This document shows, piece after piece, positions 9,640-18,859 of a stretch of 20,018 nt of DNA; the stretch's first letter is position 1; each line of letters begins with the position of its first letter. The notes below the pieces were generated by a model that saw nothing but the letters and a program-made list of their open reading frames with translations, did not search any database and was not told where the DNA came from. Position numbers and translations under genes: made by a program. Source of the stretch: a virus; the IMG/VR virus record IMGVR_UViG_3300027963_000413, positions 1 through 20,018 of that record. One strand, written 5' to 3'.

Positions 9640-10007
9640 GATCAAGCAGACTACCTAAACTTATCGCCCTGATCACGCAAAAGGGATACACATCAGTCGA
9701 GCTGGCTGAACTTGTCCATTGCACGCTCAGGTCTAGCAGAGACATGATCCAAAAGCTCAGGGAAGAAGGCAGAGTCCATGTCCAGTCGTGGCGTAAGACC
9801 AGTGTGACGCAATGGTCTGCTGTGTACCGCTACGGCATTGGAGTCGATGCAACTAAGCCTGAGCCTGTGAGCAGTAGAGTAAGACTACATAAGCACAGAA
9901 CCAAAGAAGATGCCGACACCAAGGAAAGAAGACTAGCCAAGCAGAGACAGCTCAAACGCAAGGTCAAGCGTGACCCGTTGACTGCTGCATTCTTTGGTGA
10001 GATATGA
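9636..10007 (+). CDS. Basic winged-helix DNA-binding protein
   Basis: A 123-residue, strongly basic protein. Residues 8-50 form a winged helix-turn-helix: LPKLIALITQKGYTSVELAE then LVHCTLRSSRDMIQKLREEG, with a wing-like strand after it (VHVQSWRKT). The C-terminal third is a Lys/Arg-rich tail (HKHRTKEDADTKERRLAKQR and beyond) that could add non-specific DNA or RNA contact. It might regulate phage or host genes, or guide the oxygenase encoded next. It overlaps both neighbours by ATGA. Confidence 0.75.
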   Translation: MRSSRLPKLIALITQKGYTSVELAELVHCTLRSSRDMIQKLREEGRVHVQSWRKTSVTQWSAVYRYGIGVDATKPEPVSSRVRLHKHRTKEDADTKERRLAKQRQLKRKVKRDPLTAAFFGEI

Positions 10008-10708
10008 AGACACACACATTCGCTTGGCATTCCGAGCACCCGTTCAAGCACTTGGTAATAGATGACTTCTTCCCAGATCAATTCGCTCTGCAAATATCTC
10101 AAGACTTTGACACAGTAAAAGATTTTTGGGTGCATTACAACAACGCACTTGAACACAAGTCAACCATGAATCATTGGGGTGCTTTCCCAGCCAGTATTTA
10201 TAAAGCAATGCAGCACCTTGTCTCGCCTGACTTTGTGCAGCAGATTGAGCACCTGACTGGCTGCACGCTCTACGCTGACTCTGGTCTGCATGGTGCTGGT
10301 ATGCACAGGCACATCTCTGGGGGAAAGTTAAACCCGCATCTCGACTACTCCATACACCCCAAGCTATTGCTTGAGAGACGGTTAAATCTAATCGTGTATC
10401 TGACACCCGACTGGCACAAAGACTTTGGCGGTCACTTAGGAATGTGGAGCGAGCCGTCTGATCTCGTAAGAGAGGTGATGCCTAAATTCAATCGTGCTGT
10501 TTTGTTTGACACAACAAACTCATTGCATGGACTCTCACGACCCGTTCAATGCCCAGAAGACTTTGCACGCAAGTCTCTTGCGGTTTACTACTTATGTGAG
10601 CCAAGACCGCAAGCAGAGGAAAGATACAGAGCGCTGTACTCCCCAGCAAAGGGTCAAGAAAATGATCCTAGTGTGCTGGAACTTATTGCGCTGAGAAGTC
10701 GTGTTTAA
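10004..10708 (+). CDS. 2-oxoglutarate/Fe(II)-dependent oxygenase
   Basis: The 234-residue protein has the double-stranded beta-helix signature of prolyl-hydroxylase-like dioxygenases. HLDYSIHPK gives Fe ligands H112 and D114, NSLHGLSRPV gives distal H175, and R189 (FARKSLAVYYL) is placed to bind 2-oxoglutarate. RLNLIVYLTPDWHKDFGGHL (126-145) is the typical strand after the HxD. It would hydroxylate or oxidise an unknown substrate. It begins with an ATGA overlap, and its TAA shares the palindrome TTAA (10705-10708) with the stop of the convergent ART-like gene. No terminator separates the two. Confidence 0.88.
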   Translation: MKTHTFAWHSEHPFKHLVIDDFFPDQFALQISQDFDTVKDFWVHYNNALEHKSTMNHWGAFPASIYKAMQHLVSPDFVQQIEHLTGCTLYADSGLHGAGMHRHISGGKLNPHLDYSIHPKLLLERRLNLIVYLTPDWHKDFGGHLGMWSEPSDLVREVMPKFNRAVLFDTTNSLHGLSRPVQCPEDFARKSLAVYYLCEPRPQAEERYRALYSPAKGQENDPSVLELIALRSRV

Positions 10709-12492
10709 GGGGAAAGTAGCCCGTAGTCAATCAAGTCTTGAATATTTGGTTGTTGGCGCTGCTGATCTACTGGACTCGCAAGCAGATCAGGTAATGCAAC
10801 ACCCATTGCAGTTGCGGTTGCTACATCTTTGCGGAATGGATCGAAGGCAGCGAAGCGTGAGCGAATTTGATCAGGACTAAATACAGCGCCAACATCAATC
10901 AACTTCGATGGACCAGACGCTGGATCGTATGTATTCTTCATAATCAAAGCATCGTGACCACCAGCCATAGCCTGATCAATCAAGTCTGAATAACTTTGAT
11001 CTCTGTAAGAGCTTCCAGCAAAGTCATAGACCATTGGATTCTTGTAACGCAAAGCGACTGGCAAAACATTACCACCTTCTTGTGTATTCTCCGAGATCAT
11101 TCTTTCAGCTTTGATTGCTTTAAAGTTATCAATCTGTTTAAGAGCTGGTGCAGCAGCATCTTCTCCAACAAGATTAACTAATTGCTTTTTTAGATCATTA
11201 AATTGTTTAGGTTCATAAGTGTTGTACCAACCATATGGCATTAATTCCATATATTTTTTATCTAATGCATTTGCTTCATCTTGAGATAATTTCTTGCTAT
11301 ATATTGTGTTTTTAATTGTGTCTAGCATTTGGTCTCTAGCGTCGCCATATTTAGCCACTAAACCTTGCGCATAGTTCATTCTGTTTATTTCAGAATCTTC
11401 AGCAATTTGCATTTGCTTTTCATATTCATTCCAGTCGCCACGCTTCTCTGCTGCATTAGCCTTGCGCATTGCCTCTCTGTATTCTCTTGAGCCACCAATC
11501 TGGGCATAGCCAGATGCAGTCTGAGCAGCGTTTCCTTCCATTGATACTGCATTAAGTGCAGCGATTTCCTCGTCTGTCTTGCCTAATCGTTTAAGTAAAT
11601 CTATCGACTCTTGATCAGTAGTTTTTTGCAACAAACCAGCAGGAGGATTTTGCGGATCACGCGCAAAGAAGTACGCCTTCTTAGCACTTGCAGCACCAGT
11701 AGCCTCACCAAGAAGGTCTGGTCTAAAGTTAGTAATATCACCAGTAGAACCGTGATACCAGTCTGGGTAATATCCTTGTTGCAACATTCTTGTCTCTTGA
11801 TTAGCAGACTGTCCAAGAGTTGCAGCATTTTCCTGTGCAATACGCAATGCCTGTTCTTGTGGATAAGGTGATCTTTGCGCCTTACCAAGAATATCAAGAG
11901 TTACAGACTCAACAAGCATTGCTTCTTGATCCTGATCGGTTGGTTTGTATTTTTTGTATTGCGCATCAACCATCTTTTTAAATTCTTTTTCACCAACAAG
12001 ATCGATTGACTGCTTTACCCTGTCAACGGTAGGAATGTCTTTAACCTTCAACATCTCTTCCATCGTTAACTCAGGCTTGTAAATGCCTTTTTTTAAATTT
12101 ATTGGGCTAACTGCAAACATTGGCTGCGGAGTAATAGGTGCAAGCAGACCGCCTTCACCAAGCATTGCACGATTGATCTGAGAGCCAAGCAGACCACCAG
12201 CTCTTTGCACACCTTTTGCGGTAGCCCTTGCAACAGAGCCAGCCATAGGCGCAACCGTCATCATGGCTTCAGCAGTCTCTGGCTTTAGCAATGGCACATT
12301 GGCTTGACCTATGTTCGTCAACGGTTCACCGTAAGACATACGCTCAATGGTCTTAGGTAAACCAGTTGACTCAAGCAGACTAGCCAGACCCTGCATCTGC
12401 TGGGTGCGTTGTGGTGACCTTAAATAATCGTAGCCACCATAAAGCAAACCAAGCAAAGGGTTCTGCGGTGTAGCGCCAATGTAGTCAGCCAT
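10705..12492 (-). CDS. Large presumed virion protein with ADP-ribosyltransferase-like domain
   Basis: The 595-residue protein starts at ATG with an AGGAAAA site. The first 130 residues resemble the Ala/Gly-rich N-termini of the neighbouring ejection proteins. At 245-250 WYHGST, then KKAYFFARDP (271-280), look like the NAD-binding strand and second motif of H-Y-[E/Q] ADP-ribosyltransferases. LPVALRYKNPMVYDF (477-491), GGHDALIMKN (511-520) and VGAVFSPDQIRSRF (534-547) match the C-terminal part of ART domains of phage polyvalent proteins, with Q542 in the place of the catalytic Glu/Gln. Between the halves is an insertion of about 180 charged helical residues (295-470). T4 Alt is a known precedent of an ejected phage ART. 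Catalysis is unproven here. Confidence 0.72.
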   Translation of the reverse strand: MADYIGATPQNPLLGLLYGGYDYLRSPQRTQQMQGLASLLESTGLPKTIERMSYGEPLTNIGQANVPLLKPETAEAMMTVAPMAGSVARATAKGVQRAGGLLGSQINRAMLGEGGLLAPITPQPMFAVSPINLKKGIYKPELTMEEMLKVKDIPTVDRVKQSIDLVGEKEFKKMVDAQYKKYKPTDQDQEAMLVESVTLDILGKAQRSPYPQEQALRIAQENAATLGQSANQETRMLQQGYYPDWYHGSTGDITNFRPDLLGEATGAASAKKAYFFARDPQNPPAGLLQKTTDQESIDLLKRLGKTDEEIAALNAVSMEGNAAQTASGYAQIGGSREYREAMRKANAAEKRGDWNEYEKQMQIAEDSEINRMNYAQGLVAKYGDARDQMLDTIKNTIYSKKLSQDEANALDKKYMELMPYGWYNTYEPKQFNDLKKQLVNLVGEDAAAPALKQIDNFKAIKAERMISENTQEGGNVLPVALRYKNPMVYDFAGSSYRDQSYSDLIDQAMAGGHDALIMKNTYDPASGPSKLIDVGAVFSPDQIRSRFAAFDPFRKDVATATAMGVALPDLLASPVDQQRQQPNIQDLIDYGLLSP

Positions 12493-12496
12493 CGTC

Positions 12497-14425
12497 TTAT
12501 TTTCCTAAAAGTCCACCAGAGATGTTTGGTGCATAGCTTCCAGCAGTTATTGCAGCAGCCGAAGGCAGTACGCGCTGTGCTGTGCCAAATAACTGCGCCA
12601 CACGGTCTTGCAGCATCTTGATGCCACCCTGATCGTTGAGTGCATTCATCACAAACTTAGGGTCTTCGGAGATCAATACCTGCGCGACCTTGAGTCTCTG
12701 GTCATCTGTCAGGTTAGGTGAAGACTTAGCCAAGGCTTTTTTCGCCAAGGATAGATAACTTCCCATGTTTCCTGACAAAGCGCCAGCAACCTCTTCTGCT
12801 GAGATGTTCATGCCAATGCGGTTTTGGTTGAAGACAGTTGGCGCTGTGGCTGATCCACCAAGAATTGCAGTAGCAGCTTTCTGAGACTGAGACGCACGAC
12901 CGACAGTTGCGAGCATATTGTCAAGTTCATCTTGCGGGAATATGGTGCGCAGAATCTGACCTTCTTTTGATGCTGGATCGCTGATCTTTTGCATCATTGT
13001 CTTGCCAGCACCAAGACTAGCCTTGTTGCGTAAAGCATCCATCACGCCAGCTCTAAAAGCCTTGGCTGCGCCTTCGCTCTTGTTGGCTAAGTTCTCAAAG
13101 TCGTAGGCAATTTCATCTGCACTCTTTGTGAAGACCTTGCGTCCTGCGTCGAATGATTCAGACGCTAGACGATTATTTGCAAATGTCTGGCGTGCAGTCT
13201 TCAAAGCCAACGACGCTGTATCAATCTCAGTACGAAGTGCATTCTCGGCTGCGCCTAAGTTCTTACCGACTTCACCGTAGCCACCAGTAAACGCAGCATT
13301 CTTTGCGGATGCTACGCCACGACGAATGATCTCCATGTCTTCCAATGTCGGAGTACGACTCCAGTTGACTTCACCTGTTGGCGTAACCGTCCAGAATGGC
13401 TTTTTACCAGTAGCTGACTGATAGGCATCATTGATGGCTTTGCCAGCCTCTGGGGTGCGTTTTAATGCGTCTGAGGCAGCGTCTAGCATTGGTTTATTGA
13501 TGACACCGCCTTGGCGGTACGCACCCGTGTATAGATCGCTTTCTAACTTACCAAGTTCTTGCTCACCCAAACGGTAAGACCTCAAGACATTAGCGTCTAA
13601 GTCTCCAGCAAGCCCTGCTTGCAGTTCACCCATCGCTTGCGTGCGAAGAGCTGGAGGACGACGAGTCAATGCGTCTTTGAGTGCAGTTGCAGCCTTGCCG
13701 CCGCCACGAGCAAATGCACGCACAGCGTCTTGCAATGTTGCGTTCTCTGCCATGATCTCGCCATTGGCAACCTTCTGGACGATCTCGTCAGTCGTTAAAC
13801 CTGACTCAGTAGCCAGTCGATTGATCTCAGTCTCCACGACCTTTGCACCACGATCACCAACACGACGACGGGTTGCGTCAATCACGCCATTTATCAAAGC
13901 ACCACCAGCCTTAATGACTCCCTGCGCCACAGGAGCGATCAGAGCGCCCTCTGCTGTGCCTACTGCACCAGCTTTAGCGCGTGACAATAGATCGCCTTCA
14001 GCGCTGGCTGCACCAGTAAAACCGCCTTGAGCGCCACCCATCATCATTAGTCTTGACAATGCTGGGGAAGCCTGTGCAGCGCCAACAGCTAAAGAGCCAC
14101 CACCAGTAAATGGTGCAGCAACGATTGCAGGTGCAATAGCACCACCGATTTCGTAACCTGCCGACTCGACTGGATAGGCTTTCTTGTAAACCGCCATCTT
14201 TTGGCGAATAGCAGACAGTTCGTCTTCGTACTTCGTACCTTTGAGCTGTGACTGAACTAGGGCTTCTGCTTCGTCAGAAGTTCCCATAGTCGCACCTTGA
14301 GCGAATTGTCTAATGCGTTGCGTCTCAGGCTTTGGAAGTTTAGACAGAGCGTCAATCTTTTGCGCTTGCGTCATCCCTTCTGGGAAGTCTATTGGTCCAA
14401 AACCTTCTACAAATTCGACTGCCAT
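12497..14425 (-). CDS. Presumed internal virion / DNA ejection protein, 642 residues
   Basis: Starts at ATG with an AAGGTGG ribosome site. The N-terminus carries VEGFGPIDFPEGMTQAQKID (6-25), a short motif common at the front of phage ejection and tail-associated proteins. A hydrophobic Ala/Gly-rich region follows (about 90-180: GYEIGGAIAPAIVAAPFTGG, GAVGTAEGALIAPVAQGVIK), able to enter a membrane. The rest is long amphipathic helices rich in Ala, Lys and Gln. In podoviruses such proteins are packaged in the head and ejected to form a channel for the genome. The call is by composition, length and position among tail genes. No lytic transglycosylase motif is seen. Confidence 0.68.
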   Translation of the reverse strand: MAVEFVEGFGPIDFPEGMTQAQKIDALSKLPKPETQRIRQFAQGATMGTSDEAEALVQSQLKGTKYEDELSAIRQKMAVYKKAYPVESAGYEIGGAIAPAIVAAPFTGGGSLAVGAAQASPALSRLMMMGGAQGGFTGAASAEGDLLSRAKAGAVGTAEGALIAPVAQGVIKAGGALINGVIDATRRRVGDRGAKVVETEINRLATESGLTTDEIVQKVANGEIMAENATLQDAVRAFARGGGKAATALKDALTRRPPALRTQAMGELQAGLAGDLDANVLRSYRLGEQELGKLESDLYTGAYRQGGVINKPMLDAASDALKRTPEAGKAINDAYQSATGKKPFWTVTPTGEVNWSRTPTLEDMEIIRRGVASAKNAAFTGGYGEVGKNLGAAENALRTEIDTASLALKTARQTFANNRLASESFDAGRKVFTKSADEIAYDFENLANKSEGAAKAFRAGVMDALRNKASLGAGKTMMQKISDPASKEGQILRTIFPQDELDNMLATVGRASQSQKAATAILGGSATAPTVFNQNRIGMNISAEEVAGALSGNMGSYLSLAKKALAKSSPNLTDDQRLKVAQVLISEDPKFVMNALNDQGGIKMLQDRVAQLFGTAQRVLPSAAAITAGSYAPNISGGLLGK

Positions 14426-14434
14426 AAGACCACC

Positions 14435-15787
14435 TTATCTAAATATCCATTTATTATTTTCAAAGCGCCACATTTGCTGACCAGCAGCAGGAGGAGTTTG
14501 CGCCATTCCAGCTTTCATTGACTGTTCCATTTTTACTTTAGAGGTAATGTCTTCTGGAATCTGATACTTCTGGAATGTAGAGTCAATAACTGATTTAGGT
14601 ACATATTGACCAAGCAATGCAGACTTGCGATCTGCTTGTTTGTTGTATGCCTCAATAGCTATCTTTGCGCCTGATCTGGCTAAGTTAGCAAGGTCAAGTC
14701 TTGCCTGATCGCTACCGACACCGCCAGCAGAAATCTTGTCAACAAATCCCTGCATACGGTCTGCAATGGCTTGCATCTGCTGCGCAGACTGTGCCTCACC
14801 CTGCATAACAGCAGAGTTTGGTTCAAGTGCTTTGATAGCCTTAATTAAGACACCATAGTCAGAAATACCAGCCTGACCCGTAGTCACCAAGTCCTTAACG
14901 ATGTTGTAACTTGATAGGACTGTCTCTACTGGTGTTCTGTAATTCTTATCCCACTCAGCCACCGTAGTCATAATCTGCTCTGGCTTCAATGCTGGAGCCA
15001 TGCCACCGCCATAGGTAGGAGCGCCAGCAGTTGGCTTTGGTACTGTTCCACTTGCTTCAACTCTGTTTTGCACATTAGTAGGTACTGTGCCAAGTGGATT
15101 ATTCATATCAATCAATTTCTTGCCACCAGAAGGTGTCTCGATGTATTGATAGTCAGGACGATAGACGATCTTCGTCTCACCACTAGGTAACTTGTATGCC
15201 AAAGTTGTTGGCGGTAAACCTAGACCAGCAAGTTCTGTATCGCTTAATTGATTAGCCTTCTGTCCAGCAGCCTTAAATGCCTCGCCAATAGCCTCTGTTG
15301 GCTTCATTAAAGGCAATAAGCGTCTTTGTTCTGGCGTGAGACCAGCAAACATTCCACCACCAGCAGGAGCGCCAGCAGTTGGAGCAGAACCAACAGGAGG
15401 TACGCCACCAGCTTCAGCAGGGATTGCTGGAATACCAGCTTGACCCGCAACGGCTGGAGCACCAGACTCACCGCCAAGCGCTTGCAAATAAGCCTTCATT
15501 CTGGCTTGCTCTAATGCGCCTTCTTGTAACTTCTGGCGTGTCAACAGATTCTGTATAGCGCCTTGCTGTGCCTGACCATAGCCTTGCTGTCCTGCTTGCA
15601 GAGCACCGCCAAGCGCTTGACCGATAGAGATCGGCTGACGGCTTGGACCACCAGCAGAAAGCAAAGCAGATGCTGCTTGAAGCATTGACTGCTGCTGAAT
15701 GTTGCTTTGTTGTTCTGGCGTGAGATAGTCCTCAAGACCAGTACCGCCTTGACCAAATAGTAAACCACCAAAGTCTGTGAGTGCCAT
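14435..15787 (-). CDS. Presumed internal virion protein, Gln/Ala/Gly-rich, 450 residues
   Basis: Starts at ATG with an AAGGA site, 10 nt after the upstream gene. The first 100 residues are rich in Gln, Ala and Gly (LTPEQQSNIQQQSMLQAASA near the start), typical of podoviral ejection proteins. The middle has a Pro/Ala/Gly linker where PTAGAP-x(0-2)-GGGM-x3-L-x-PEQ occurs twice (about residues 135-152 and 252-270), reflecting an 18-base exact DNA repeat at 15017 and 15365. The C-terminal third is helical. No enzyme domain is recognised. It lies in line with the two other large presumed ejection proteins. Confidence 0.65.
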   Translation of the reverse strand: MALTDFGGLLFGQGGTGLEDYLTPEQQSNIQQQSMLQAASALLSAGGPSRQPISIGQALGGALQAGQQGYGQAQQGAIQNLLTRQKLQEGALEQARMKAYLQALGGESGAPAVAGQAGIPAIPAEAGGVPPVGSAPTAGAPAGGGMFAGLTPEQRRLLPLMKPTEAIGEAFKAAGQKANQLSDTELAGLGLPPTTLAYKLPSGETKIVYRPDYQYIETPSGGKKLIDMNNPLGTVPTNVQNRVEASGTVPKPTAGAPTYGGGMAPALKPEQIMTTVAEWDKNYRTPVETVLSSYNIVKDLVTTGQAGISDYGVLIKAIKALEPNSAVMQGEAQSAQQMQAIADRMQGFVDKISAGGVGSDQARLDLANLARSGAKIAIEAYNKQADRKSALLGQYVPKSVIDSTFQKYQIPEDITSKVKMEQSMKAGMAQTPPAAGQQMWRFENNKWIFR

Positions 15788-15797
15788 TTTTAAATCC

Positions 15798-17048
15798 TTA
15801 CATCAAGCCGAGCAAACCACCAATGCCAGCGCCATAACCAGCATACTCAGGGTTAGCCGTTCCACCGATTAACTTGCCTAATGTTGCGCCACCCAATGCA
15901 CCGCCAAGAGCAGAAGCCGTGGTGTTTTGGTACAGAGGAGTTGTCTGCGAACTACCTATATTTGCGGGTTGTAAGCTCAATGCGCCTTGCGCCACATTCA
16001 AACGCTCTAGACCTAAGTTGCGAGCTGCATCGAGCTTTTGCTGTTCGTACTGCTGTTTGAGTTGTTGCTGTGATAGACCCAAGTTCTGAGCCTGTGCAAA
16101 GCCAGTATTCCGCAGTTGAGCAACAGCATTTGTTGCGTTGCGTAGTGCTGCCTCGTCAACCAATGATCTTGTTACGCCTTGGCGTGAACCACCAAAGGCT
16201 TTAGCTGCTGTGGCTGCTGCACCTTCAGCAGATATTTGACCTTGACGAGCACGCTCAATATCTCCAAGAGTTCCTTGGATTACTTGTTGCTCATATGGGT
16301 TCATGTACTGCTGAACCATTCCAAGGTTGTACTCAGCATAAGGAGCAAACTGCTTTGGTGCTAAACCAGCAGCAGTTGCTCTGGCTTCTTCTAGGTTTCG
16401 TAAATATGCTGCCTTGATCTCTGGATCAACGCTAGTGGTTGCTGTGCTTGATGTTGGTGTGTTAGAGCCTAAAGCCTTGGCTGCTGTTAAGCCAAGACTT
16501 GCTGCCGTCAGCATATTGGATGGACTAGCGGTAGCCCAGTTGTATGCGCCTTGCAATAAACCTGTTTGCGTAGAGCCTAGACCGCCAGCAGCAGCACCTT
16601 CAGCAGTTACTGGCGCAACGGTGCTTAATGCAGTTGTTGAATCTAGCGCTGGTACGACTGGAGACAATGGAGGTAAAGCAGTTGCAGTCGCAGCAGGTGT
16701 GGCAGCATTAGCTAAAGCTGTTCCAGCAGCCGATCCTGCTGCCGAAGTACCAAGTGCTGGAAGTTCTGTCGCAATGACTGAACCGCTAGTGACTGGAGTC
16801 GCTACTGCGCCAGCATCAGATACAGCAGCCAAAGGTACTGTCTCACCAGTTGTGGCGCTTACATAAGCTCCTATCTCTGGTGCGTAGTAATAACCAGCAG
16901 CCATCAAAGCAGCCAGAGTCCAGCCTTGTGGACCAAGCGTATTGCGTACACCCTGATCAATGCTTACGCCAAGATCACTTACGGCATTTATAGCGCCTTG
17001 ACCGATGTCACCGACACCGCTAACTACATCGCTTACGACTCCACCCAT
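15798..17048 (-). CDS. Presumed internal virion / ejection protein, 416 residues
   Basis: Starts at ATG with a GGGAGATG-type ribosome site. Residues 42-57 are a hydrophobic helix; 70-190 are a low-complexity Ala/Thr/Pro/Gly stretch. From about 208 a helical domain begins with DPEIKAAYLRNLEEARATAA and contains YMNPYEQQVIQGTLGDIERA (248-267) and AKAFGGSRQGVTRSLVDEAA, a pattern I have seen in many phage head-to-tail or ejection-module proteins. The C-terminus (ASALGGALGGATLGKLIGG and on) is Gly-rich and probably membrane-active. The function is inferred from composition and the tail-gene context. Confidence 0.68.
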   Translation of the reverse strand: MGGVVSDVVSGVGDIGQGAINAVSDLGVSIDQGVRNTLGPQGWTLAALMAAGYYYAPEIGAYVSATTGETVPLAAVSDAGAVATPVTSGSVIATELPALGTSAAGSAAGTALANAATPAATATALPPLSPVVPALDSTTALSTVAPVTAEGAAAGGLGSTQTGLLQGAYNWATASPSNMLTAASLGLTAAKALGSNTPTSSTATTSVDPEIKAAYLRNLEEARATAAGLAPKQFAPYAEYNLGMVQQYMNPYEQQVIQGTLGDIERARQGQISAEGAAATAAKAFGGSRQGVTRSLVDEAALRNATNAVAQLRNTGFAQAQNLGLSQQQLKQQYEQQKLDAARNLGLERLNVAQGALSLQPANIGSSQTTPLYQNTTASALGGALGGATLGKLIGGTANPEYAGYGAGIGGLLGLM

Positions 17049-17061
17049 ATCATCTCCCTTG

Positions 17062-17403
17062 TCACACCTTGTTGGTGTAGATAAAAGCCTTCGATCCGTC
17101 TAATAGTGATATTTGACATTTCTCAGACCAGCCAAATGACTTGGCAAATCTTACAAGTTTGATGTCTTCTTCGCGTATCAGCGCGACGAGAGGCTTCCCA
17201 ATTAAATTCTCAATCAGAGCAATGCTCTTCAAGCAGTCCTTTTTGACCCCAGAAGACCATCTTCTGATCTCCACATGAATCCACAAATTACCCCTAAAAA
17301 ACTCCAAGTACACAATGTAATCCTCTCGGATACATACAGGTACTTTTCCTGCCCTTAATTCTTGATCCAATTCTAAGTCACCGCTTACCCATTGCGACAA
17401 CAT
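17062..17403 (-). CDS. Small GNAT-like phage protein in the tail/ejection module
   Basis: From ATG at 17403 the product is 113 residues. An alternative TTG at 17421 has a better ribosome site (GAGG, 9-nt spacer) and would add six residues, so the start is uncertain. Both overlap the end of the tail-hub gene. Features such as VPVCIREDYIVYLEFFRGNL, HVEIRRWSSGVKKDCLKSI and LVRFAKSFGWSE follow an acetyltransferase-like fold seen in small proteins of podoviral structural modules; T7 gp13 (internal virion protein A) is a distant analogue by position and fold. The acetyl-CoA motif A is absent, so it is more likely structural or an assembly factor than an enzyme. Confidence 0.6.
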   Translation of the reverse strand: MLSQWVSGDLELDQELRAGKVPVCIREDYIVYLEFFRGNLWIHVEIRRWSSGVKKDCLKSIALIENLIGKPLVALIREEDIKLVRFAKSFGWSEKCQISLLDGSKAFIYTNKV

Positions 17404-18859
17404 CAAAACGGTTAACGCCAACGCGCCAGTCCTCTAAGACATTGCCCGTGTATCTGACCTTGACCTGTCTGGCAGCGAATCTCACATCTGTGGGTTGAGC
17501 TGCGGAATACGGTCCATAAGTCGTCTCAGTCGCCATCGGGTACATCCGAGTCTTGAAGGACACAACGACCTCACCTAGCGTTTGCTCGTCAGGTATGACG
17601 CGACGCACCGACATGATGTTGTCGCCAGCACCGATCTCGTAAGGACCAGACTCAGCGTAGGGGACAGCACCGTCGTAAGTGAATCCGACTTCGTGCTCAT
17701 AGATGTAGCCGTCAGTTGAGATCATCAAAGGATTGGTGAATACGCCTCTGTCAGTTCCAGCAGTACGAGCCAAAGAACCAATAGCCCAATGCCCTTCGCG
17801 GTAGTTGTAGACGACATAGGAGTCATTCTCATTGCTGGCGCTAGACGGGTAAAACCAGATGATCTCGCCATACTTTGAGTTGTGTACTGCGTAGACCTTG
17901 CTTGACTGGTTGTAGTTGATGTTCTGGAAGATGTAGTCACCAACATCTGACACCAAGGGCTTGACATAGCCGTCATATACCCAGAAGCCTGACTTAGACA
18001 TCCAAATGGCTGCGGTGTCAATGGCTGCTACTGCCTGTGAGGAGATCACGCCACAGCCTGACCCTGCCTTTTCAAAGGAGTAGACATAAGGCAGACCGAT
18101 GTATGTCGCCACATGGACATCGACATCTGTAAAGATTAGATTGATACCTCGGACGCGCTTGCCACACTTTATTGAGCCGACTGAATTGATCTCAAAGTCA
18201 CCTGCCTGATTGGTTGCCGATGGTGTCCAGACGGTGTTGTTTTCTTGATCACACCAAGATACCTTGCGTGGATTACCTGATGCGCCAAGGGCAAAGACAA
18301 ATCTTTCTGCTGTCGTCATCACAGCTTCGCAGCTCGTTGGCGCGTTGACAATGGCTATAGCCTTTGTTGGCGTGGTAAAGCCTAGCTGCCACTCAAGGAG
18401 CTGACCGTCAGCGCTTGAACACGCCACAAGATACTCGCCCCATGAATCCATCGACCAAGTTGTTGCTGGCACTATTGCACCTAAATCTGGACGCGCTACA
18501 CCATAGGCAGAAGAACCGTAGGTACTGTAACCATAGCCAGTCTTTAGCGTTGCGTCTGTAATGCCAGTCGTAAAGGTTGTAGGCGTGATGTCCTTGAGAG
18601 TACCAGCCTCATTCATTGCGTAGAGCTTTGTAGGCGTGCCAGCAGCAATGTAGCGTTCATCTGCATTGGTACGCCAAGTCAGCATTCCACGACTAACACC
18701 AGTCATCTGACTGTTTGATCTTTTACGCCACCCACCCCAAGGTCTCAAAGTGTTCTCAAACCATCTGACTAAGTTGGAGTCGAACCATCGCCCCGCAGAC
18801 TGGTACTCAGTACCATTGCGGTAAACGCCAGCAGGGATTTTGATTGGTACGAGTGCCAT
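17378..18859 (-). CDS. Tail hub / packaged-DNA stabilisation protein (P22 gp10-like)
   Basis: The 493-residue protein begins MALVPIKIPAGVYRNGTEYQ and continues through RWFDSNLVRWFENTLRPWGGW, the characteristic opening of the short-tail hub proteins that plug the portal after packaging. The body is made of beta-rich repeats with many aromatic and Gly residues (GIPYVYSFEKAG-like strands around 255-270; SKSGFWVYDGYVKPLVSDVG, SKYGEIIWFYPSS) that look like propeller blades. The length is close to P22 gp10 (about 470). The ATG has no good Shine-Dalgarno site and starts 9 nt after the fibre-like gene, so coupling is likely. This gene is the main reason to suspect a podovirus. Confidence 0.72.
   Translation of the reverse strand: MALVPIKIPAGVYRNGTEYQSAGRWFDSNLVRWFENTLRPWGGWRKRSNSQMTGVSRGMLTWRTNADERYIAAGTPTKLYAMNEAGTLKDITPTTFTTGITDATLKTGYGYSTYGSSAYGVARPDLGAIVPATTWSMDSWGEYLVACSSADGQLLEWQLGFTTPTKAIAIVNAPTSCEAVMTTAERFVFALGASGNPRKVSWCDQENNTVWTPSATNQAGDFEINSVGSIKCGKRVRGINLIFTDVDVHVATYIGLPYVYSFEKAGSGCGVISSQAVAAIDTAAIWMSKSGFWVYDGYVKPLVSDVGDYIFQNINYNQSSKVYAVHNSKYGEIIWFYPSSASNENDSYVVYNYREGHWAIGSLARTAGTDRGVFTNPLMISTDGYIYEHEVGFTYDGAVPYAESGPYEIGAGDNIMSVRRVIPDEQTLGEVVVSFKTRMYPMATETTYGPYSAAQPTDVRFAARQVKVRYTGNVLEDWRVGVNRFDVVAMGKR

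What the first reader, a model, noticed from the sequence alone, without database searches (positions are those of the whole stretch)
10705..12492. ADP-ribosyltransferase-like domain in a presumed ejected virion protein
YHGS, AYFFA, GGHDALIM and VFSPDQIRS appear in the order seen in ART domains of phage polyvalent proteins, but with a helical insertion of about 180 residues between the halves. The gene closes a series of ejection-type proteins whose N-termini it resembles, so the enzyme may enter the cell with the DNA, as T4 Alt does. If active, it could modify host RNA polymerase, translation or a defence protein at the moment of infection.
Basis: partly seen in the sequence, partly recalled or inferred. 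Interest (0 to 1): 0.62.

Follow-up and report, generated by a model that had tools for sequence, protein, structure and literature searches.

The report
Swappable phage effector with ADP-ribosyltransferase domain
A short-tailed phage carries, right after its probable DNA-ejection genes, a protein whose back half is a real but helix-interrupted ADP-ribosyltransferase-type domain, and in closely related phages that back half is swapped for many other probable enzymes behind the same front end, which suggests an interchangeable set of effectors that may be delivered into the host cell.

Summary
The 595-aa ORF at 10705-12492 (minus strand) is real, under purifying selection, and residues 236-552 are a split ART-PolyVal (PF18760) domain. 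Both halves match the profile in order; 50 of 51 relatives match it; profile-profile comparison with insert-free canonical members gives probability 99.8. A confident model of one such member retrieves PARP/tankyrase and other ART folds. The insert is real: about 190 residues, helical, in two pieces flanking a conserved A-x-x-Y-A helix, variable in length among relatives. The main addition is that the gene is a polymorphic slot: 77 distinct viral proteins share its first ~95 residues but carry 26 C-terminal types (18 in this same slot), and between close phages the cassette is exchanged within matching flanks. Virion packaging and ejection remain inference from position (last gene of a P22-like tail/ejection run; in other phages beside terminase and portal). 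N-terminal resemblance to the upstream ejection proteins was not supported. Substrate unknown. New variant of a known kind.

The parts
10705..12492 (-). Whole gene, 595 aa; ATG at 12492, 4 nt after the stop of the upstream gene, TAGGAAA about 10 nt upstream as possible ribosome site
12208..12492 (-). N-module (residues 1-95), shared by 77 distinct viral proteins with 26 different C-terminal types; no Pfam, PHROG or NCBIfam match
11788..12207 (-). Linker (residues 96-235), with a joint 'PYPQEQAL.LAQ..A' that recurs before other effector types
   Evidence: 11821-11884 still 84% identical to L018 inside an otherwise replaced stretch
11647..11787 (-). ART core part A (residues 236-282): strand 1 with H247, strand 2 with F275
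   Evidence: H 51/51, aromatic 49/51
11521..11646 (-). Insert 1 (residues 283-324), between strand 2 and the A-x-x-Y-A helix
11494..11520 (-). Conserved TASGYA helix (residues 325-333; A326 49/51, Y329 42/51 across ART-PolyVal members)
11077..11493 (-). Insert 2 (residues 334-472), helical; under purifying selection but less conserved than the core
10837..11076 (-). ART core part B (residues 473-552): strands with D514 (49/51) and the PxQIRS motif with Q542 (47/51)
10708..10836 (-). C-terminal tail (residues 553-595); nearly identical in L018, whose middle is unrelated
10712..12184 (-). Exchanged cassette: in close relatives with matching DNA on both sides this stretch (or most of it) is replaced
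   Evidence: L015, L017, L018, L021, L024, L026
12497..14425 (-). Upstream large protein (phrog_5880; one weak hit to an annotated 'DNA ejection protein'); very distant or unrelated proteins occupy this position in other phages
14435..15787 (-). Upstream protein in the position of a P22-like ejection gene, function inferred from order
15798..17048 (-). Upstream protein in the position of a P22-like ejection gene, function inferred from order
17378..18859 (-). gp10-like tail/stabilization protein (phrog_3287, virion structural)

Best explanation
The gene encodes a modular effector of a short-tailed phage. Shown by sequence: residues 236-552 are a helix-interrupted member of the ART-PolyVal branch of the ADP-ribosyltransferase superfamily, with H247 and D514 at the published catalytic positions; the first ~95 residues are a common N-terminal module; the stretch behind it is exchanged as a cassette among related phages. 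Inferred: the protein is made late with the tail and ejection proteins, is packaged in the head through its N-terminal part, leaves with the DNA, and uses host NAD+ to ADP-ribosylate a host macromolecule (RNA polymerase, translation or a defence protein) at the start of infection. Different phages fill the slot with different enzymes (ART, GNAT, PBECR nuclease, ParB-like, metallopeptidase), perhaps because hosts and defences vary.
For: ART domain: two ordered half-matches to PF18760, 50 of 51 relatives match, hhalign 99.8% / E 6.6e-30 of the second half against the insert-free L247 family, which itself matches PF18760 at E 4.7e-24; active-site columns conserved over 51 divergent members; model of L247 built on an alignment that includes the window protein, pLDDT 87 and pTM 0.79, matches tankyrase, PARP4, RES and NatT ART folds. 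Constraint: dN/dS 0.04-0.16. The same module stands in multi-domain phage proteins beside a canonical ART-PolyVal (L093, L238) or LPD23 and a weak metallopeptidase match (L082). Polymorphic slot. Position: end of a gp10-like and ejection-like gene run, 4 nt from the preceding gene; a complete circular relative shows the slot as the last gene of the late run; in another phage group the N-module gene precedes terminase and portal. No room for an immunity gene directly behind most slot alleles. The published survey uses such contexts as evidence of head packaging (PMC9503650).
Against: No virion proteomics and no cultured relative. The N-module has no homology to the upstream ejection proteins or to any known carrier, so it is not shown to be a delivery signal. 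Of 61 N-module genes with enough upstream sequence only 31 lie behind recognisable ejection-gene homologues. The strand-2 Tyr is Phe. The window protein alone stays below Pfam's cut-off (20.5 and 21.7 against 31.2 bits). The model of the window module itself was poor (pLDDT 61.6). Some ART-fold enzymes hydrolyse NAD+ instead of transferring ADP-ribose.
Confidence: 0.6

Rival explanations
1. The domain is an ART-fold NAD+ glycohydrolase: it consumes NAD+ and does not modify a target, for example to starve or disarm the host.
For: Fold neighbours include RES and NatT toxins, which from general knowledge degrade NAD+; the PARP-type catalytic Glu is not at its usual place; Tyr is replaced by Phe.
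Against: PARP/tankyrase transferases rank at least as high; the family is described as protein-modifying; depleting NAD+ at entry would not obviously help a phage.
Confidence: 0.2
2. The protein is not packaged; it is made late and acts in the producing cell, for example against superinfecting phages or to aid lysis.
For: Only the position in a late operon is known; the N-module has no demonstrated delivery function.
Against: Position directly behind ejection-like genes in one phage group and beside terminase/portal in another; domain partners are those of polyvalent proteins, which are predicted to be injected.
Confidence: 0.25
3. The ART domain is degenerate and serves as a structural or binding module.
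For: Phe in place of the catalytic Tyr; large insert.
Against: H247 and D514 are conserved in 51/51 and 49/51 of the divergent set; Phe or Trp stands at the Tyr place in most insert-free members sampled as well; strong purifying selection.
Confidence: 0.12

Closest known systems
ART-PolyVal (Pfam PF18760; Tox-ART-HYD2 clade, Iyer et al. 2017, PMC5512222)
   Same: Strand-1 His, strand-5 Asp, A-x-x-Y-A helix, PxQI[KR]S motif, order of elements; insert-free homologues in very large viral proteins
   Different: About 190 helical residues in two inserts; Phe for the Tyr in strand 2; sits alone behind a short N-terminal module rather than in a large multi-domain protein
Phage T4 Alt
   Same: Logic: ART thought to enter with the DNA
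   Different: R-S-E clade; packaging and injection of Alt are established, here they are not
MuF polymorphic toxins of phages (PMC12226406)
   Same: Constant N-terminal part linked to virion genes, with exchangeable C-terminal enzymes
   Different: No MuF domain; no adjacent immunity gene seen; found in phages with a P22-like gp10
Polyvalent proteins of phages and conjugative elements (PMC5512222)
   Same: Same repertoire of effector domains (ART, GNAT, PBECR, ParB, metallopeptidase, LPD23)
   Different: The window protein holds one recognised enzyme domain; diversity is between phages at one slot, not within one polypeptide

Membership tests
ART-PolyVal (PF18760) | Profile match over the domain, both halves in order | tested here: met
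   Residues 245-279 to profile 9-37 and about 470-545 to profile 47-132; hhalign of second half to the L247 family 99.8%
ART-PolyVal (PF18760) | Score above Pfam's curated cut-off (31.2 bits) for this protein as a whole | tested here: not met
   20.5 bits whole protein, 21.7 bits module; the insert splits the match. For this reason I call it a divergent, insert-bearing branch homologous to the family, not a plain member
ART-PolyVal (PF18760) | His in strand 1 | tested here: met
   H247, 51/51
ART-PolyVal (PF18760) | Tyr in strand 2 | tested here: not met
   F275; across the 51 members F 29, Y 14, W 6. L247, which passes the Pfam cut-off by far, also has Phe, so Tyr is not diagnostic of the family as sampled
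ART-PolyVal (PF18760) | Asp in strand 5 | tested here: met
   D514, 49/51; the assignment of the published Asp to this column is mine
ART superfamily | ART fold | tested here: inconclusive
   For the insert-free homologue L247 the VIA-align rows are tankyrase PARP domains and the NatT toxin, Z up to 7.6, rmsd 2.5-2.9 over about 105 residues; the model of the window module itself was too poor to decide
ART superfamily | NAD+-dependent transferase activity | not testable with these tools
   needs an assay
T4 Alt / VIP2 (R-S-E) clade | Arg-Ser-Glu active site | tested here: not met
   H-F-D configuration; no Pfam hit to an R-S-E ART
Ejected virion protein | Presence in virion and transfer into host | not testable with these tools
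   only position and architecture
MuF polymorphic toxin | MuF N-terminal domain | tested here: not met
   no Pfam match in residues 1-130
Polyvalent protein | Two or more unrelated effector domains in one polypeptide | tested here: not met
   only the ART domain was recognised in P0001; relatives such as L082 (LPD23, weak metallopeptidase, ART) come closer

The most novel reading that the evidence does not exclude
A previously undescribed phage-borne polymorphic effector system: a short, non-MuF N-terminal module acts as a packaging/ejection tag in short-tailed phages, and homologous recombination at conserved joints (linker and C-terminal tail) swaps dozens of unrelated enzymes, among them this helix-insert ART, into one slot at the end of the ejection operon, without immunity genes.
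Probability: 0.45. Interest if true: 0.72.

Novelty: new variant of a known kind. Interest (0 to 1): 0.52.

Why it matters
If the N-module is a delivery tag, one locus gives a list of at least 26 kinds of probable host-takeover or anti-defence proteins, and a short tag whose role in packaging can be tested. It would extend the virion-packaged ARTs, best known from contractile-tailed phages, to P22-like short-tailed phages, and the two-part helical insert offers a way to ask how such ARTs choose targets.

Tried and rejected
Model of the window module alone: low confidence (pLDDT 61.6), and PDB searches with it returned only unrelated helical proteins driven by the insert; treated as inconclusive. 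PDB sequence hits to a viral fusion glycoprotein at 400-474 are weak (best E 0.006) matches of a helical stretch and were dismissed. PRP1_N, FemAB and similar Pfam hits are weak and scattered. Homology of the N-module to the upstream ejection proteins: tested, not found. Bacterial genome scan with the module: no relative; that scan rests on two short patterns. The genome search with PF18760 gave nothing anywhere, controls included, so it is uninformative. First clustering of C-terminal parts by single linkage merged types through shared linkers and was replaced. No paper in the held library was found that describes this slot.

Full report
What is there. The finding is the minus-strand ORF 10705-12492, 595 aa, in a 20-kb IMG/VR virus record. 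It starts 4 nt after the preceding gene and overlaps, tail to tail, a 2OG-Fe(II) oxygenase gene on the other strand. The genes before it, in reading order, are an M15 peptidase, a small BclA/C1q-like protein, a gp10-like tail stabilization protein (phrog_3287, E 4.8e-82), a short ORF, and three larger proteins in the order expected for P22-like ejection genes, the last of which belongs to phrog_5880. The label 'ejection' for these three is positional; only one weak match to an annotated DNA ejection protein was seen.

The ART domain. P0001 matches Pfam ART-PolyVal weakly at 245-279 (profile 9-37; E 8.5e-4), and the isolated module matches at about 470-545 (profile 47-132; E 3.7e-4). The two stretches are therefore the two parts of one profile in the right order, split between profile positions 37 and 47. 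Scans of viral contigs found about 50 distinct relatives of the module at 55-98% identity, and 50 of 51 match the same family. A further scan found natural relatives without most of the insert, in viral proteins of over 2000 residues (L247-L249). L247 matches ART-PolyVal at E 4.7e-24, and the profile of the window's family aligns to the L247 family with probability 99.8, E 6.6e-30. This is homology, not motif resemblance.

Active site. In an alignment of 51 diverse members, His 247 is invariant, the position of the strand-2 aromatic (F275) is F, Y or W in 49, D514 is D in 49, and Q542 is Q in 47. The family description gives H in strand 1, Y in strand 2 and D in strand 5 (PMC5512222). I assign these to H247, F275 and D514. 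Phe at the Tyr position is shared by many insert-free members.

Fold. A model of the window module was not good enough to use (pLDDT 61.6). A model of the insert-free relative L247, built on the alignment that includes the window protein, is confident (pLDDT 87.2, pTM 0.79). Foldseek's best matches are tankyrase, PARP4 and RES folds, none below E 0.001; VIA-align gives Z up to 7.6, rmsd 2.5-2.9 over about 105 residues, and every listed row is a tankyrase PARP domain or the NatT toxin. Z under 8 is modest, but the uniformity of the list together with the sequence evidence makes the ART fold the natural reading. It rests on a homologue, so for the window protein itself I mark the fold test as inconclusive.

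The insert. It consists of residues 283-324 and 334-472, on either side of the conserved TASGYA helix, which aligns with the A-x-x-Y-A helix of insert-free members. Relatives with a short connection and with intermediate lengths exist. The insert is helical in the model, at moderate confidence, less conserved than the core (0.59-0.61 against 0.74-0.79 mean identity) but constrained; whole-module dN/dS is 0.04-0.16. It could serve in target choice or in passage through the tail; neither was tested.

The slot is polymorphic. Relatives found with the whole protein fall in two groups: those that share the N-terminal 95-150 residues but have other C-termini, and those that share the ART module behind other N-termini. 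A scan with the N-terminal alignment gave 77 distinct complete proteins in 26 C-terminal types, 18 of them found in the same genomic position behind the ejection-like genes. Recognised domains include PBECR5 nuclease, DUF7178, LPD23 with a metallopeptidase, ParB-like and a weak GNAT match; many types have no Pfam match. Between close phages the DNA matches on both sides (about 89-92% over the downstream flank 9660-10711 and 83-98% at the 5' end of the gene) while the stretch between, at most 10712-12184, is replaced; in L018 the match runs into the C-terminal tail of the gene, and a joint at 11821-11884 is still recognisable. This is allelic cassette exchange. Slot alleles are followed within about 200 nt by the convergent genes in most cases, which leaves no room for an immunity gene, unlike MuF polymorphic toxins, whose immunity genes are linked (PMC12226406).

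Does it enter with the DNA? Evidence is contextual. In one phage group the gene closes the tail/ejection run, also in the complete circular relative MW202879, where the slot holds another protein. In another group the N-module gene lies directly before terminase and portal genes. Both are contexts that the published survey treats as suggestive of head packaging (PMC9503650). About half of the N-module genes with enough upstream sequence do not lie behind ejection-gene homologues (31 of 61 do); those looked at belong to the second group.

Verdict. New variant of a known kind.

Noticed in passing
window 12497-14425; L001 5725-7989, L012 5393-7222, L006 3732-5648, L030 6099-7997, L031 6201-7997: The gene before the slot is itself variable: several very distant or unrelated large proteins occupy the same position in related phages.
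   Followed up: partly
L025 5933-6361: N-module ORF that leaves the family sequence after about residue 93 and ends early, in a phage otherwise very like the window; a broken allele or an assembly error.
   Followed up: no
L238 (1782 aa) and L093 (1728 aa): A canonical ART-PolyVal and the helix-insert version stand in the same large protein, so the two forms coexist.
   Followed up: partly
L033, L016, L020, L019, L023 and others (15 proteins): The second most common C-terminal type of the slot has no Pfam match in the members scanned; motifs such as 'YNT..GxYxG' recur.
   Followed up: no
window 10004-10708 (+): 2OG-Fe(II) oxygenase gene overlaps the end of the slot gene tail to tail and is kept beside many different slot alleles.
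   Followed up: no
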